Positions 1,372-6,747 of a stretch of 64,000 nt of DNA are shown piece after piece. The position numbers and the translations under genes are program-made. Under the pieces are notes generated by a model. It made no database searches and was not told the origin of the DNA. It worked only from the letters and a program-made list of their open reading frames with translations. The stretch covers positions 744,001-808,000 of the forward strand of contig NZ_LMSU01000002.1 in assembly GCF_001429625.1 (NCBI RefSeq), in the 5' to 3' direction. The DNA comes from Nocardioides sp. Soil805 (GTDB taxonomy: Bacteria; Actinomycetota; Actinomycetes; Propionibacteriales; Nocardioidaceae). The first letter of the stretch is position 1. Every line of letters starts with the position of its first letter.

Positions 1372-1377
1372 GACCCG

Positions 1378-1408
1378 CGCCGGACGCCCGTCGTGCGGGC
1401 GCCCGGCG
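1378..1408. terminator. hairpin terminator between convergent genes
   Basis: Two 13-nt arms (1378-1390 and 1396-1408) pair with a single A-C mismatch around a 5-nt loop, right after the methyltransferase stop and before the stop of the minus-strand gene. There is no T-run, so this is a GC-type, probably bidirectional, terminator. Confidence 0.7.
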
Positions 1409-1425
1409 TCGGGGTCACTGGTCGG

Positions 1426-1707
1426 TCAGGACTCGATCTGCTCGATGATCGCGTCGACGTCGGTGTCGGAGAACAGCGGCAGGATCACCATCGTCCACTC
1501 CGACCGCTTGTCGTCGAGGGCGCTCGCGAGGTCCCACGCGGCCTGGGCGCCCATGGGGCCGAGACGGACGACGTCGCCGGCCTCGTCGTCGTCGAAGTCG
1601 GTGTCGACCTCGACCATCCAGGTGTCCGACCAGTCGGTCGCGAAGTCCTCGAACGAGGCGTCCTTGTCGTCGGGGGTGTCCTCGGCGACGGGGAAGATGA
1701 GGCCCAT
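1426..1707 (-). CDS. small acidic protein of unknown function
   Basis: About 93 residues when started at the ATG of MGLIFPVAED; a longer version starting at MNPSAP (1746) is possible. The product is strongly acidic, with stretches such as DTDFDDDEAGD, and has no signal peptide or membrane segment. It contains several Trp residues (DWSDTW, AAWDL) and ends in a DVDAIIEQIES helix-like segment. I do not recognise a family. It is convergent with the methyltransferase gene and stands alone; its promoter side faces the low-GC two-component island. Codon use is high-GC and looks native. Confidence 0.7.
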   Translation of the reverse strand: MGLIFPVAEDTPDDKDASFEDFATDWSDTWMVEVDTDFDDDEAGDVVRLGPMGAQAAWDLASALDDKRSEWTMVILPLFSDTDVDAIIEQIES

Positions 1708-1882
1708 GTGAGTTCCGTTCGTGTCGGGTGGCGCGGACGGGTTCATCGTGGCACGTCGGCGCAACCAGCCCGTACGCCGCGGGTGCGTGCGGCGGATAAA
1801 GCGATCGCGAGACTCTTCAAAGCGTTCGTTGGTCGTCGGTTGGCCAGTTCAGGTTAAGGATGCGGCTTCGCTCCCGCGGCCA

Positions 1883-1888
1883 TAGGCT
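1883..1888 (+). promoter_or_regulatory. -10 hexamer TAGGCT, leaderless start
   Basis: TAGGCT ends 6 nt before the ATG at 1895, so transcription should start at or next to the start codon. There is no Shine-Dalgarno. This supports 1895 as the response-regulator start. Confidence 0.5.
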
Positions 1889-1894
1889 CCCTCC

Positions 1895-2533
1895 ATGTGG
1901 AGAAGAGCCCCCGTTCCAGGCGAACCGGACATCGAGCAGGTGCGAAGGAAGTCGCGGATCCTTGTCATCGACGATCAAGCGTTCCCAGCTCAGCGAAGCT
2001 TTACGCGCGACGGGTATCACTTTGAACGGTGGCCAGCGATCCGAAACATGACGCAGTTAACGGACGGTGATTGGGACGTTATTCTGCTTGATATTCAGGG
2101 GGTTGGCCTTGTTGAAAGTCCGGACCTTCAGGGCCTCGGAATTCTGAAACACATTAAGAAGGCAAACCCGGCGCAAGCGGTGATTATTTACTCTGCCCAG
2201 CCTCAGGCGGTGTCCTCCACTGAATACTTAACGCTGGCCGACGCCGTCTTCGATAAGGGCATGAGCTATCTCGAATATAAGGAAAAGGTCGATGAACTAC
2301 TAGTGCGTCATGCGACGCCAGGTTACTTCATTGCCGCCATGAATCGAGAACTAGGCGAAAGTGCTGCGCTAGCACCTCGCGCTGTGCCACTAGCCCTCCG
2401 TGGGTTTAGGAAAGGCAATGCGGACGGTTTGCGTCGCTACTTAAGTTCCTCGTTGACTGATCAAGAGAAGGCTGAGCTCATTACGCATGTTATTACCATC
2501 GGCATCCGAGTGGTCGGTGCGGTGTCATCGTGA
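1895..2533 (+). CDS. response regulator, receiver domain with unknown C-terminal tail
   Basis: A 212-residue protein. The receiver domain (about residues 20-140) has a full set of phosphorylation residues: acidic pair D26-D27 in VIDDQ, acceptor D66 in LLDIQG, S100 in YSAQ, and K121 in DKG. The last 70 residues (ALRGFRKGN..., RRYLSSSLTDQEKAEL) match no DNA-binding domain that I recognise, so the output is unknown. Base composition is low: I count 58 G+C in the 120 bases 2041-2160, against 43 of 60 at 961-1020 in the neighbouring methyltransferase. Rare codons such as TTA, ATA-type and AAA occur, indicating acquisition by transfer. The stop overlaps the kinase start as GTGA. It is probably phosphorylated by that kinase. 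Confidence 0.85.
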   Translation: MWRRAPVPGEPDIEQVRRKSRILVIDDQAFPAQRSFTRDGYHFERWPAIRNMTQLTDGDWDVILLDIQGVGLVESPDLQGLGILKHIKKANPAQAVIIYSAQPQAVSSTEYLTLADAVFDKGMSYLEYKEKVDELLVRHATPGYFIAAMNRELGESAALAPRAVPLALRGFRKGNADGLRRYLSSSLTDQEKAELITHVITIGIRVVGAVSS

Positions 2534-3672
2534 CAATTGGCCCATGGCCCCTGTTCCCCTATCCAACGATCACGTCCAGTGGAGTAACAGACGGATCGCT
2601 GTTTCCGGTTCACGCGGACTGTCAATACTGCCCTACTCGCGAGTGCGTTAAAGACGATGGAGCGCCCGTCGGCATTTCAAAGCAATGCCGTTTCGGGCTC
2701 ACCTACGCACGTGTCGATGACAACCGCGTCGTTGCCGGCGTTGTCACGTCAGACCTTCCTGCCACCACTCAGAGGGCGCGCAAACGGATTCGACGGGAAC
2801 CGCAGCGACATGTGCGTGCAGCAACCCTAAGGTCCTCCATCGAGGCCGCACGCAGGCTCGGGGTCGGCGTGGTTGACGACATGGAGGCCGCGCGGCAAGA
2901 AGCATTTGCGAGATTGGAGACCGATCCTGAGTTCCTTCGTTCGCTAGCGGAACAGCTGCGCCAGGACTTTGCTGACAACTTGAATCAAAGTCACGACTTC
3001 CTGCAGTTAGTCAAGTTGGTTCGTGGTCATGCGGAGTCCCTGTTGCATGACCGATACCCCGACCTGCCCCCGTCGGAGGCGGCGGACAAGTTGCCGACCG
3101 AAGGGGCGATCTACTACTCGACGGAACTGATGCTGTTGAAGATGGATTCGATGGTCTTTCTCAACGAGATCAACATTGTTCATGGAAGTGAACGTCGATT
3201 CAAGGTTCATTCCTTCTTCCTCAAGTACCTCAGGATATACGACTGGCAGGCAAGGGAAAAGGATCTGCGCGTTCGTCTCGAAGGGACTTGCCACTCCTCC
3301 GTCTTTTACAATGATAAGGCGATTGGGGCGGTCTTCCAAGGACTTCTAGACAATCTGGTGAAGTATTCGCCACCAAGTTCTTCGGCTGCCGTAACTTTCA
3401 ACGAACTTGAGGACCACATCTCGATAACCTTCACGTCCCTCGGCCCGCGCATCGAGCAACATGAACGACAACAGATCTTCCTTCCTAAATATCGCGCAAA
3501 AGCGGCGAGAGCTATTGAGATGACGGGTCTCGGCGTTGGGCTAGCCGCGGCAAAGCAGATTTCGGACGCGTTAGATCTGGAGCTTCAAGTCGAGCAGGAC
3601 GACACCGAGGATGGGCGCTTCCCTGGCCGCTTCCGAACCACTTTTAACGTCCGGCTCCAGCGGGCGCAGTGA
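2530..3672 (+). CDS. soluble sensor histidine kinase with N-terminal Cys cluster
   Basis: A 380-residue protein with no membrane segment. The N-terminus has four cysteines, C31, C34, C39 and C53 (C-x2-C-x4-C-x13-C), which could bind Zn or an Fe-S cluster. A helical region follows. H155 in NQSHDFLQLV is the likely phosphoacceptor, in a degenerate DHp helix without the usual HE.RTPL sequence. The second DHp helix is FLNEINIVHG. The C-terminal HATPase domain has an N-box at GLLDNLVKYSPP (N275) and a G2 box at TGLGVGLAAAKQI (from G333). The GTG start overlaps the response-regulator stop by 4 nt, so the pair forms an operon. The base composition is low-GC, like its partner. The ligand and the phosphotransfer target outside this pair are unknown. 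Confidence 0.82.
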   Translation: MTIGPWPLFPYPTITSSGVTDGSLFPVHADCQYCPTRECVKDDGAPVGISKQCRFGLTYARVDDNRVVAGVVTSDLPATTQRARKRIRREPQRHVRAATLRSSIEAARRLGVGVVDDMEAARQEAFARLETDPEFLRSLAEQLRQDFADNLNQSHDFLQLVKLVRGHAESLLHDRYPDLPPSEAADKLPTEGAIYYSTELMLLKMDSMVFLNEINIVHGSERRFKVHSFFLKYLRIYDWQAREKDLRVRLEGTCHSSVFYNDKAIGAVFQGLLDNLVKYSPPSSSAAVTFNELEDHISITFTSLGPRIEQHERQQIFLPKYRAKAARAIEMTGLGVGLAAAKQISDALDLELQVEQDDTEDGRFPGRFRTTFNVRLQRAQ

Positions 3673-3693
3673 CTAATGGCTGCTAGTCGCCTT

Positions 3694-3716
3694 CCAGACG
3701 GATAGGGAACGTCTGG
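3694..3716 (+). terminator. hairpin after the two-component pair
   Basis: CCAGACG (3694-3700) pairs with CGTCTGG (3710-3716) around a 9-nt loop, 21 nt after the kinase stop. There is no T-run. Confidence 0.45.
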
Positions 3717-3790
3717 GGAACCCGCGATCGGCACAGAGAGAGCGGGGCCACGGGTCACACATGCCGAGATGGCATCCGGATACGCCTGCG

Positions 3791-3817
3791 GCCCCGCCGG
3801 TGTCGCGTGGGCGGGGT
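3791..3817 (-). terminator. weak hairpin downstream of the HNH gene
   Basis: CCCCGCC (3792-3798) pairs with GGCGGGG (3810-3816), extendable by one G-U pair, just after the stop of the minus-strand HNH gene. Confidence 0.35.
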
Positions 3818-3831
3818 CCGGGGCGTGGTGG

Positions 3832-5199
3832 TCAGAGGTCCGGCGGGTGCGAGGTGCCGGGTTCGGGCCAGGCGCGTCCGGTGGCTCGGCTGCCGGTGTA
3901 GTCGCGCAGGTAGGTGAAGCCAAAGGGGCTGGTCCAGGTGAAGACGCCCGGCTCGGTCATCTCGTAGCGCCATCGGCCGTGGGTCTTCAACCGATGGTGC
4001 CGCCGGCACAGCGCAGCGAGGTTGTCGGTGGACGTCAGTCCGCCGCGCTCGGGGTGGTCGTGGTCGTACGGGATCACGTGGTCGAGGTCGCATCGCCTCG
4101 CGTTGCGTCCGCACCACGGGAACACACACGTCCCGTCGCGGACGATCACGTGCTCACGGATCTTCTCTGTGGGCTCGTAGCCCTTGCACTCGAGGCGGTC
4201 CCGGAGGTCGATGACGGGCTTGACGACGACCTGGGCATCGGGGCGTCCGCACCAGGCGCGGATCTGCTCGACCGACAGCACTCGCTGGCCGGCCTGCTCG
4301 ACCCGTGCCACCAGCTCCTTGCCGGTGCTGTTGGTCGTCTTGTCGTGGTGGGTGATGGCGTCGGCCGACAGGTGGGCGTGGAGCACGACCTGGGTGACGG
4401 GTGCCGAGGCTCGCTGCGCCGGCACCTCACTCACCGGGGAGTCCTCGTCGAACCCGATGCTGAGCTGGTGTCGAGCGAGGTCGCCGAGCGCGGTCGCGCG
4501 CCTGCCGTCGACGGTGTCGGTCGACCCAAGACGTGCCAGGTGCTCGGCGCCGGACTTCACCGCGGCGGCCAGGGCGAGCGCGTCGGGGATCTCCAGGCTC
4601 GCCTCCAGTCCCATGGTCCCGTCGTACGACGCCTGCTCGGTGTCGAAGGTGACGTGCCGCTTGTCTGCGCTCTTCTCGAGCGCGTCAGCAACCTGGTCGG
4701 GCATGAACCGCACCCTCGCCTCGTCCACCACACGCCCCAGCTGCGCGGGCGTCAGCCGGGACGCGCACCAGAAAACCTGCTCGTCCACGAACGTCGCCGC
4801 TTCCAGGGTCAGGTCGATGGTGGTGTCCGCGATCAGCCGGGCCCGCCACCCGGCAACCAGGCCCGCCTGCACGGCACCCCAGAGCTGGGGCAGGCGGTAG
4901 GCCAGCTCCACGCACTGGGACAGGAAGTGGCCGGCGCTGTCGTTGGTGCGACCGAGCATCGTCGCGAACTCCGGGACGCAGAACTCGTCGATCGCCGGGG
5001 ATCCCTCACCTGCGAACGTCTTGGGCGAGGTGAAGCAGGCTTCGGCGAACTCCGGGTCCGCCAGGTGCAGGTCTGCCCAGTGCACGCCGAGACGCATCAT
5101 CTCCACGTCCTCCGCCGCGGCCCGTTCGCGGGAGGCTCGGACCGCGCGCAGCAGCGCGGCCGGAGTCTCCGGCAGCGCGGGTGCGGCGGTCTTGGTCAT
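3832..5199 (-). CDS. DUF222 / HNH endonuclease domain protein (13E12 family)
   Basis: A 455-residue protein with the layout of the actinobacterial 13E12/REP13E12-like family: a long helical DUF222 region (about 30-330) followed by a C-terminal HNH nuclease. In the HNH, the zinc-type cysteines and catalytic His are visible as CVFPWCG, RCDLDHVIPYDH and ALCRRHHRLKTHGRW. Members occur in many, often variable, copies per genome. Their natural role is not established, although DNA cleavage is expected. It lies next to the low-GC island but its own codon use is high-GC and native-looking. It is a single gene, with no partner methyltransferase. Confidence 0.88.
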   Translation of the reverse strand: MTKTAAPALPETPAALLRAVRASRERAAAEDVEMMRLGVHWADLHLADPEFAEACFTSPKTFAGEGSPAIDEFCVPEFATMLGRTNDSAGHFLSQCVELAYRLPQLWGAVQAGLVAGWRARLIADTTIDLTLEAATFVDEQVFWCASRLTPAQLGRVVDEARVRFMPDQVADALEKSADKRHVTFDTEQASYDGTMGLEASLEIPDALALAAAVKSGAEHLARLGSTDTVDGRRATALGDLARHQLSIGFDEDSPVSEVPAQRASAPVTQVVLHAHLSADAITHHDKTTNSTGKELVARVEQAGQRVLSVEQIRAWCGRPDAQVVVKPVIDLRDRLECKGYEPTEKIREHVIVRDGTCVFPWCGRNARRCDLDHVIPYDHDHPERGGLTSTDNLAALCRRHHRLKTHGRWRYEMTEPGVFTWTSPFGFTYLRDYTGSRATGRAWPEPGTSHPPDL

Positions 5200-5306
5200 G
5201 GCTCAAGCCAAGCAGGGACCACCGACAATCAGACGGCGAAAACAGCCGGATGGACCGGCATGTGGACACGACTTTCGAGGACTTCCAGGACGCCGGGAGC
5301 AAGCGC

Positions 5307-5987
5307 TCAACGACGCCCGGCGCGGATGAGGTCGACGACCTCGGCGGTGGGGCGCACGTCGCCGTACGAGCGGTGGACGACGTGCAACGTGGCGTTGTGG
5401 TCGCGGTCGCGCGTCGCGGCGCAGGCATCGGCGACGAGGATGACCCGGAGGTCGAGAGTCGCCGCGTCGCGGACGCTCGCCTCGACACAGACGTTGGTGA
5501 CCGTGCCCGTCACGACGACGGTGTCGACGCCACGCGCGGCGAGGAGGGCGGGCAGGTCGCTGCTCCCGGGGAAGAAGGCGCTGTACGCCGTCTTCTCGGC
5601 GACGACGTCCCCGTCGGCGACCGCGAGCTCCGGCCACAGGCGCTCGGCCGGGGTGCCGGGACCTCCGGACCGTGCGTAGCGCTCGGCGATCTCCTCTCCC
5701 CGGTGCTCGCGGTCGCGGGGGGTGGGCTCGCGATAGCCGGGCACGACCCACGCCACCGTGCCCCCGGCGGAGCGCAGCTCCTCGGCGAGGAGGTTGACCT
5801 GCGGAATGATGCCGCGGCAGTACGCCGACTCCTCCACGAAGAACGGCACGACGTCGATGACGACCAGCGCGGTGCGCGTCGGGTCCAGGGTCTCGAAGGC
5901 GTGGCGACGACCTCGGCGCTCCTCGAGGCGCAGGTACTCGCGCTCCTCGATGTGCCAGTCGTGGAAGGCGACGTCGGTGCTGGTCAT
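5307..5987 (-). CDS. isochorismatase-family cysteine hydrolase
   Basis: A 226-residue member of the isochorismatase/nicotinamidase-like fold. The catalytic triad is visible as D45 (VVIDVVPFF), K132 (AEKTAYSAF) and C167 (GTVTNVCVEAS), with the usual cis-peptide region GTVTN. The N-terminal 35 residues (AFHDWHIEERE) are an extension outside the core fold. The substrate cannot be deduced; amides such as N-carbamoyl compounds, nicotinamide or ureidoacrylate are typical of the family, and a metal-site HxH of nicotinamidases is not obvious. It appears monocistronic, with a leaderless -10 box in front of the ATG. Confidence 0.85.
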   Translation of the reverse strand: MTSTDVAFHDWHIEEREYLRLEERRGRRHAFETLDPTRTALVVIDVVPFFVEESAYCRGIIPQVNLLAEELRSAGGTVAWVVPGYREPTPRDREHRGEEIAERYARSGGPGTPAERLWPELAVADGDVVAEKTAYSAFFPGSSDLPALLAARGVDTVVVTGTVTNVCVEASVRDAATLDLRVILVADACAATRDRDHNATLHVVHRSYGDVRPTAEVVDLIRAGRR

Positions 5988-5993
5988 GGGCGG

Positions 5994-5999
5994 AGGGTA
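5994..5999 (-). promoter_or_regulatory. -10 hexamer TACCCT, leaderless start
   Basis: On the minus strand TACCCT ends 6 nt before the ATG at 5987. There is no Shine-Dalgarno, so the mRNA probably starts at the start codon. Confidence 0.5.
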
Positions 6000-6003
6000 G
6001 GCG

Positions 6004-6747
6004 TCACGCGGGTCGCGAGGCGACGAGCACGCCGATCTTGTCGATCCGGTGCTCGGGGTTGTCGAACTCGTCGGCCCAGTAGTTGCCGGCCGCGTGGTCC
6101 TCGAGGGTGGCGCAGGTCGAGAGCGTGATCATCGCCCGCCTGGCCTCGACGCCGGGTCGCCCGGGGACCGGGGCACGCTGCGCCGCCAGGGAGTCCTCGG
6201 AGCGGAACGACGTCCAGCGGGTGCGGCGTACCTCGTAGACGTGCACCGTGTCGCCCACCCGCACGAGGACGCGGCTCCCGCGGGGCAGCGACGGCAGGTA
6301 GCGGAAGGGCTGGGTCGAGGACAGTCGGTGGCCGGTGACGATGTGGTTGCCCACCTCCCCGGCCGCGACCCCACCGCCGGGACCGCGGGGTGAGGCGAGC
6401 GAGCCGTCGTTCTGGAGGGCGGTGCCCGCCGCGTCGTCGGGCGACCCGCGGTAGTGCACCACCGGGAAGTCCCGCAGCCCGAGCCGCGGCACGGTGAGGA
6501 AGGCCCGGCGCGGCTCCGGCCGCGGGGTGGCCGTCGAGGGCGAGGGAGTCGACGGCGCGGGCGTGGTCGGCAGCGACGACGGGGACGGGGTGCCGGACGG
6601 GGTGGACGACGAGGCGGACGGCGAGGCGGGAGCGGGCGCGGTGCGGGGCTCCGGGCCACCCCGGGGAGCGGCCGACGGGGACGAGCACCCGGACGCCACC
6701 AGGGCGCCGCCGAGCGCGAGCCCGACCACCCGTCGTACGCCTGCCAT
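6004..6747 (-). CDS. sortase family transpeptidase with lipoprotein-like N-terminus
   Basis: A 247-residue protein. The sortase core spans about 82-245: H140 in IVTGHR, catalytic C212 in ITLSTC, and a late Arg (R234, EHRIDKIG) as the third residue. The TLSTC form is closest to class D/E sortases. The N-terminus is a signal sequence ending VASGC (C21), which looks like a lipobox, followed by about 55 residues rich in Pro, Ser and Thr that would span the wall. Sortases usually keep an uncleaved membrane anchor, so lipid anchoring would be unusual. No LPxTG substrate gene or pilin lies nearby, so the housekeeping substrate set must be elsewhere. Confidence 0.82.
   Translation of the reverse strand: MAGVRRVVGLALGGALVASGCSSPSAAPRGGPEPRTAPAPASPSASSSTPSGTPSPSSLPTTPAPSTPSPSTATPRPEPRRAFLTVPRLGLRDFPVVHYRGSPDDAAGTALQNDGSLASPRGPGGGVAAGEVGNHIVTGHRLSSTQPFRYLPSLPRGSRVLVRVGDTVHVYEVRRTRWTSFRSEDSLAAQRAPVPGRPGVEARRAMITLSTCATLEDHAAGNYWADEFDNPEHRIDKIGVLVASRPA

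What the first reader, a model, noticed from the sequence alone, without database searches (positions are those of the whole stretch)
1895..3672. Low-GC two-gene phosphorelay island with a Cys-cluster soluble kinase and receiver-only regulator
By hand count 58 of 120 bases at 2041-2160 are G+C, against 43 of 60 at 961-1020. The two genes overlap (GTGA). The kinase is cytoplasmic, with C31/C34/C39/C53 and a degenerate phosphoacceptor helix (H155). The regulator has all receiver residues but an unrecognised 70-residue output tail with no DNA-binding motif. Known two-component pairs have a classic HisKA and a helix-turn-helix; this pair has neither. It could be a mobile signalling or defence module whose tail is the effector or a protein-interaction domain.
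Basis: partly seen in the sequence, partly recalled or inferred. Interest (0 to 1): 0.72.

Follow-up and report, generated by a model that had tools for sequence, protein, structure and literature searches.

The report
Mobile two-gene phosphorelay, candidate phage defence
A small, foreign-looking pair of genes encodes a soluble sensor kinase and a partner switch protein with no DNA-binding part; the same pair hops between chromosomes and plasmids of unrelated bacteria and belongs to a catalogued but untested candidate virus-defence family, of which this is a divergent version.

Summary
RR 1895-2533 (212 aa) and HK 2530-3672 (380 aa) overlap by GTGA, are 55% GC in a 72.5% GC window, and the counts and residues quoted are right. 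Both match PADLOC's untested candidate defence family PDC-M43 (A = RR, B = HK), so the kind is already modelled, though only its core matches. The module is mobile: 2 of 216 genomes of the genus carry it, at unrelated chromosomal sites, low-GC in both; a third genome shows the empty site; relatives sit on an Escherichia coli, a Shewanella, a Phaeobacter and a 6.2-kb Kosakonia plasmid. All six loci hold both genes. Shared oddities not in the finding: every RR has one hydrophobic segment (N-terminal TM in gamma-proteobacteria, C-terminal helix here and in two others), and every HK lacks the Asp of the DxGxG ATP box. H155 aligns with the HisKA phospho-histidine, so the DHp is degenerate, not absent. 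The Cys cluster is conserved in the second genome only. Best reading: a horizontally moved phosphorelay whose receiver acts directly, perhaps at the membrane, probably in defence; defence and membrane action are untested. Structure models were too poor to use. New variant of a known, uncharacterised kind.

The parts
1895..2533 (+). Response-regulator-like gene (RR), 212 aa; PDC-M43A relative
   Evidence: ORF; PADLOC PDLC04646 E 2.7e-16 over residues 11-136; Response_reg E 0.0019, below Pfam cut-off
1952..2305 (+). Receiver domain, about residues 20-137; D26/D27 (1970-1975), phosphoacceptor D66 (2090-2092) followed by family motif D-[ILV]-x-G-V-G, S100 (2192-2194), K121 (2255-2257)
   Evidence: PmrA/CheY/NtrC alignments; invariant columns D26 D27 D66 G69 V70 G71 in six relatives
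2306..2530 (+). 75-residue C-terminal tail, no known domain; residues 141-160 95% identical to the second genome, rest divergent
2471..2527 (+). C-terminal hydrophobic, amphipathic segment AELITHVITIGIRVVGAVS (residues 193-211), the most hydrophobic stretch of the RR
   Evidence: KD19 mean 1.47, highest helical moment of the protein; helix 189-211 only in a very low-confidence model
2530..3672 (+). Soluble histidine-kinase-like gene (HK), 380 aa; PDC-M43B relative
   Evidence: ORF; HATPase_c E 2e-11; PADLOC PDLC04647 E 2.8e-15 over residues 220-358
2620..2688 (+). Cys cluster C31-x2-C34-x4-C39-x13-C53 in the N-terminal domain
   Evidence: all four identical in G063, absent from the plasmid relatives
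2992..2994 (+). H155, presumed phosphoacceptor, in SHDFLQLV
   Evidence: aligned with the H-box His of SrrB 6paj; FADNLNQSHDFLQLVKLVRGHAE identical in G063
3352..3366 (+). N box N275-x-x-K278-Y279 of the ATPase domain
   Evidence: invariant in six relatives
3436..3450 (+). Degenerate G1 box S303-L-G-P-R307 in place of DxGxG
   Evidence: Asp replaced by Ser or Met in all six relatives
3526..3540 (+). G2 box G333-x-G335-x-G337
   Evidence: invariant in six relatives
3775..5278 (-). Neighbour, not part of the module: dispersed multicopy HNH-endonuclease-like unit (gene 3832-5199)
   Evidence: at least five other copies 82-89% DNA identity in the same genome; absent beside the pair in G063

Best explanation
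A horizontally transferred two-gene phosphorelay of the PDC-M43 kind. The soluble kinase senses an intracellular cue with its small N-terminal domain, which in this lineage carries a four-cysteine (perhaps metal or redox) site. It then autophosphorylates at H155 and passes the phosphate to D66 of its partner. The phosphorylated receiver does not bind DNA; its tail, ending in a hydrophobic helix, acts directly, most likely by associating with or disturbing the cell membrane once the receiver dimerises, so that an infected or stressed cell stops growing. Shown here: the genes, the conserved residues, the co-occurrence, the mobility, the family match and the hydrophobic segment. Inferred: phosphotransfer, the cue, membrane association, and a role in defence. 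Sub-confidences: mobile co-inherited HK-receiver module 0.95; non-transcriptional output 0.65; defence role 0.5; membrane-acting output 0.35.
For: Both genes at all six loci found; presence in 2 of 216 genomes of the genus and in no further genome of the family, order, class and phylum samples; different sites and low GC in both genomes; empty site in G021; no pair at glnA in 20 relatives. PADLOC PDC-M43A/B hit every RR and every HK scanned. Candidate defence genes near two plasmid copies. Every RR has one outstanding hydrophobic segment, at one end or the other. No DNA-binding or other output domain.
Against: No experiment on PDC-M43 was found; two other PDC systems tested in a native host gave no defence (PMC12409345). 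No recognised defence gene beside the pair in either chromosome of this genus. The C-terminal segment scores 1.47, under the usual 1.6 for a membrane helix, and carries an Arg in the middle. The G1 box is degenerate, so kinase activity is uncertain. The window proteins match only the core of the PADLOC profiles.
Confidence: 0.45

Rival explanations
1. An accessory two-component pair with a normal signalling job: the tail is a protein-interaction domain that controls a host regulator or enzyme, and the hydrophobic segment is only an anchor or a dimerisation helix. No defence.
For: Intact receiver residues and H155; tail block 141-160 is as conserved as the receiver core, typical of a binding surface; no recognised defence genes adjacent in the two chromosomes of the genus.
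Against: Extreme patchiness, small mobile carriers and match to a family built from genes embedded among defence genes; a tail tuned to a host protein would travel poorly.
Confidence: 0.3
2. The kinase is not an ordinary ATP histidine kinase: with the adenine-binding Asp of DxGxG lost across the family, it is a pseudokinase or phosphatase, or reads another nucleotide, and the pair works as a nucleotide or metal sensor with the receiver as a bound partner.
For: G1 Asp replaced by Ser or Met in six of six relatives while the N and G2 boxes are kept; the H-box lost its R-T-P part.
Against: N box, G2 box, H155 with its following acid, and every receiver residue are retained; one histidine-kinase structure hit (8dx0) also aligns Asn, not Asp, there.
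Confidence: 0.15
3. Passenger DNA without a selected function in this genome, captured beside a repetitive HNH element.
For: Low GC, next to a dispersed multicopy unit.
Against: Saturated synonymous and low non-synonymous divergence from the second genome; both frames intact; no HNH unit beside the pair in G063.
Confidence: 0.05

Closest known systems
PDC-M43 (PADLOC-DB 2.0.0 phage defence candidate, PDC-M43A + PDC-M43B)
   Same: Same two genes in the same order; receiver core and ATPase core match at E 1e-15; the gamma-proteobacterial plasmid relatives match over nearly their full length
   Different: Only the core of each profile is matched; here the hydrophobic segment is at the C-terminus, the N-terminal TM and linker are missing, and the kinase has a four-Cys site
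Classical HisKA two-component systems (PhoR/PnpS, SrrB)
   Same: DHp-like helix with H155 aligned to the H-box His, HATPase_c, partner receiver
   Different: No transmembrane sensor, H-box HDFLQL in place of HELRTP, G1 box without Asp, no DNA-binding output
Detocs (from memory: Rousset et al. 2023; paper not held)
   Same: A histidine kinase and receiver proteins used as a phosphorelay in phage defence without a transcription factor
   Different: Detocs has three genes and a receiver fused to a purine-nucleoside-phosphorylase-type effector; here two genes and no enzyme domain

Membership tests
PDC-M43 candidate defence system | RR matches PDC-M43A models and HK matches PDC-M43B models | tested here: met
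   PDLC04646 2.7e-16, PDLC04647 2.8e-15; the same for every relative scanned
PDC-M43 candidate defence system | Full-length match to both profiles, including the N-terminal part of M43A | tested here: not met
   M43A matched at 71-198 of 203, M43B at 184-322 of 347; near full length only in gamma-proteobacterial relatives. PADLOC's own coverage cut-offs were not at hand
PDC-M43 candidate defence system | Adjacent A-B gene pair | tested here: met
   A then B at six of six loci
PDC-M43 candidate defence system | Protection against phage | not testable with these tools
   no published test found
Classical HisKA two-component system | Pfam HisKA domain | tested here: not met
   no HisKA hit at E 1, though H155 aligns with the H-box His of SrrB
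Classical HisKA two-component system | HATPase_c domain with N, G1 and G2 boxes | tested here: inconclusive
   domain E 2e-11; N and G2 kept, G1 Asp lost
Classical HisKA two-component system | Receiver with D, D, D, S/T, K residues | tested here: met
   D26 D27 D66 S100 K121
DNA- or RNA-binding response regulator (OmpR, NarL, ANTAR) | Known output domain in the tail | tested here: not met
   no Pfam match to the tail at E 10, no convincing PDB match
Detocs | Three genes with receiver-PNP effector | tested here: not met
   two genes only, no enzyme domain

The most novel reading that the evidence does not exclude
A phosphorelay that ends at the membrane: phosphorylation of a receiver with a single membrane helix, found at the N-terminus or the C-terminus in different branches of the family, triggers membrane disruption or growth arrest upon phage infection, driven by a histidine kinase that uses a non-canonical nucleotide pocket.
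Probability: 0.2. Interest if true: 0.75.

Novelty: new variant of a known kind. Interest (0 to 1): 0.47.

Why it matters
Histidine-kinase phosphorelays are rarely considered as stand-alone immune modules. A compact, mobile kinase-receiver pair with a membrane helix in place of a DNA-binding domain would make a direct, testable case for phospho-signalling that ends in an effector rather than in transcription. It also supplies a divergent actinobacterial version of a catalogued but uncharacterised candidate family, with features (swapped hydrophobic helix, lost G1 Asp, Cys site) that tell experimenters which residues to mutate.

Tried and rejected
Viral-contig scans found no relative with six queries; phage records gave only generic kinase-domain matches or none. 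The five Streptomyces loci of the genome scan matched through the ATPase domain only; those read are HAMP-type membrane kinases beside OmpR-type regulators, not relatives. No shared ends, target-site duplication, tRNA or inverted repeats bound the module; similarity of the flanks between the two genomes is no more than shuffles give. The HNH neighbour as a third component was rejected: it is a genome-wide repeat absent beside the pair in G063. The E. coli plasmid pair has no close DNA match in the complete E. coli genomes. Helix-turn-helix, ANTAR and enzyme outputs gave no Pfam match at E 10. NreB-type iron-sulphur kinases were considered from memory; the Cys spacing as I recall it differs, and no test was run.

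Full report
What is there. Two + strand genes overlap by GTGA: RR, 1895-2533, 212 aa, and HK, 2530-3672, 380 aa. The island is 55.5% G+C in a 72.5% window, and its third-position G+C is 0.57 and 0.64 where seven flanking genes have 0.90-0.99. The genes are under selection: compared with the second copy found, synonymous sites are saturated (pS 0.83 and 0.79) while pN is 0.20 and 0.29.

Receiver. Profile and single-sequence comparison give an ordinary receiver (PmrA, CheY, NtrC) with D26, D27, D66, S100 and K121. A family motif D-[ILV]-x-G-V-G follows the phosphoacceptor in all six relatives. The 75-residue tail matches nothing in Pfam at E 10 and nothing convincing in the PDB. Its first part (141-160) is 95% identical to the second genome, as conserved as the receiver core; the rest has drifted, but its last 19 residues or so remain the most hydrophobic stretch in both (1.47 and 1.75).

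Kinase. HATPase_c is clear; HisKA is not found by Pfam. phmmer to SrrB (6paj) aligns the conserved block DFADNLNQSHDFLQLV with DFIANVSHELRTPI, which puts H155 on the phospho-histidine and D156 on the acid after it, with the R-T-P part lost. NCBIfam PnpS and PhoR models also align from residue 140 onwards. The N and G2 boxes are kept, but the G1 box reads SLGPR here and lacks the Asp in all six relatives (Ser or Met). That Asp normally contacts adenine (established knowledge of GHKL ATPases), so nucleotide use is uncertain. C31, C34, C39 and C53 are identical in the second genome but absent from the plasmid relatives, which appear to share the small N-terminal beta region without the cysteines (the shared region is judged by eye). 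The cluster is therefore a lineage-specific elaboration.

Relatives and mobility. In the genus, 2 of 216 genomes carry the pair; searches of the family, class, phylum and order samples found no other genome. In the second genome, G063, the pair (RR 69%, HK 59% identical) lies between glnA and an inorganic-pyrophosphatase-like gene, again at 55-58% G+C; 20 relatives have no pair next to glnA. At the window's site, G021 keeps truA, methyltransferase, the small 93-aa gene, the sortase-like gene and the aldo-keto reductase with about 65 bases where the window has RR, HK, HNH and isochorismatase-like genes. No ends, duplications or tRNA mark the insertion. On plasmids, an E. coli F-type plasmid, a Shewanella baltica conjugative plasmid, a Phaeobacter plasmid and a 6.2-kb Kosakonia plasmid (where the pair is the main cargo and the kinase runs across the record start) carry the same order RR then HK. 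All six loci have both genes.

Family. PADLOC's candidate system PDC-M43 models both genes; every RR scanned hits M43A and every HK scanned hits M43B (the Kosakonia kinase was not scanned). The gamma-proteobacterial relatives match nearly full length; the window proteins match only the core. PDC systems are described as putative, recognised by embedding among defence genes, mostly unvalidated (PMC12988326), and two others were tested without effect (PMC12409345). The Shewanella copy lies 4-6 kb from two CBASS-type 2TM effector-like genes beside a gene annotated diadenylate cyclase, and the E. coli copy near a NACHT protein with candidate-defence similarity. Neither chromosomal copy of this genus has such company.

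The membrane point. E. coli, Kosakonia and Shewanella RRs begin with a transmembrane-like helix (KD19 1.84-2.08) and a linker, then the receiver; the window, G063 and Phaeobacter RRs begin with the receiver and end with a hydrophobic or amphipathic segment (1.47-1.75). So each protein has one outstanding hydrophobic element, at opposite ends. This suggests, without proving it, that membrane contact is part of the output. Alternatively it is a mere anchor or a dimerisation helix.

Mechanism. I favour a kinase that senses an intracellular cue, phosphorylates D66, and so activates a receiver that acts directly, perhaps at the membrane, to stop growth of an infected cell. Phosphotransfer, the cue, membrane action and defence are inferred. 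Structure prediction from single sequences failed.

Verdict. The kind is already catalogued, so this is a new variant of a known but uncharacterised kind.

Noticed in passing
window 3775-5278 (gene 3832-5199, - strand): HNH-endonuclease-like gene in a 1.5-kb unit repeated at at least five other places of the same genome at 82-89% DNA identity, most copies broken into several frames. It looks like a recently dispersed element; its ends were not defined exactly.
   Followed up: partly
window 1372-6004: The interval between the truA-methyltransferase pair and the sortase-like gene is variable in relatives: nearly empty in G007, 65 bases after the small gene in G021, about 1 kb of other sequence in G012 and G030, 4.6 kb here. 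It may be a small insertion hotspot.
   Followed up: no
L025:3825-5650: Shewanella baltica plasmid pSBAL11701 has two PADLOC 2TM-effector-like genes flanking a gene annotated diadenylate cyclase, a possible unusual CBASS-like cluster with two effectors.
   Followed up: no
L026: A 6.2-kb Kosakonia cowanii plasmid carries the pair as its main cargo; the kinase gene crosses the record's start and is therefore missing from the gene table.
   Followed up: yes
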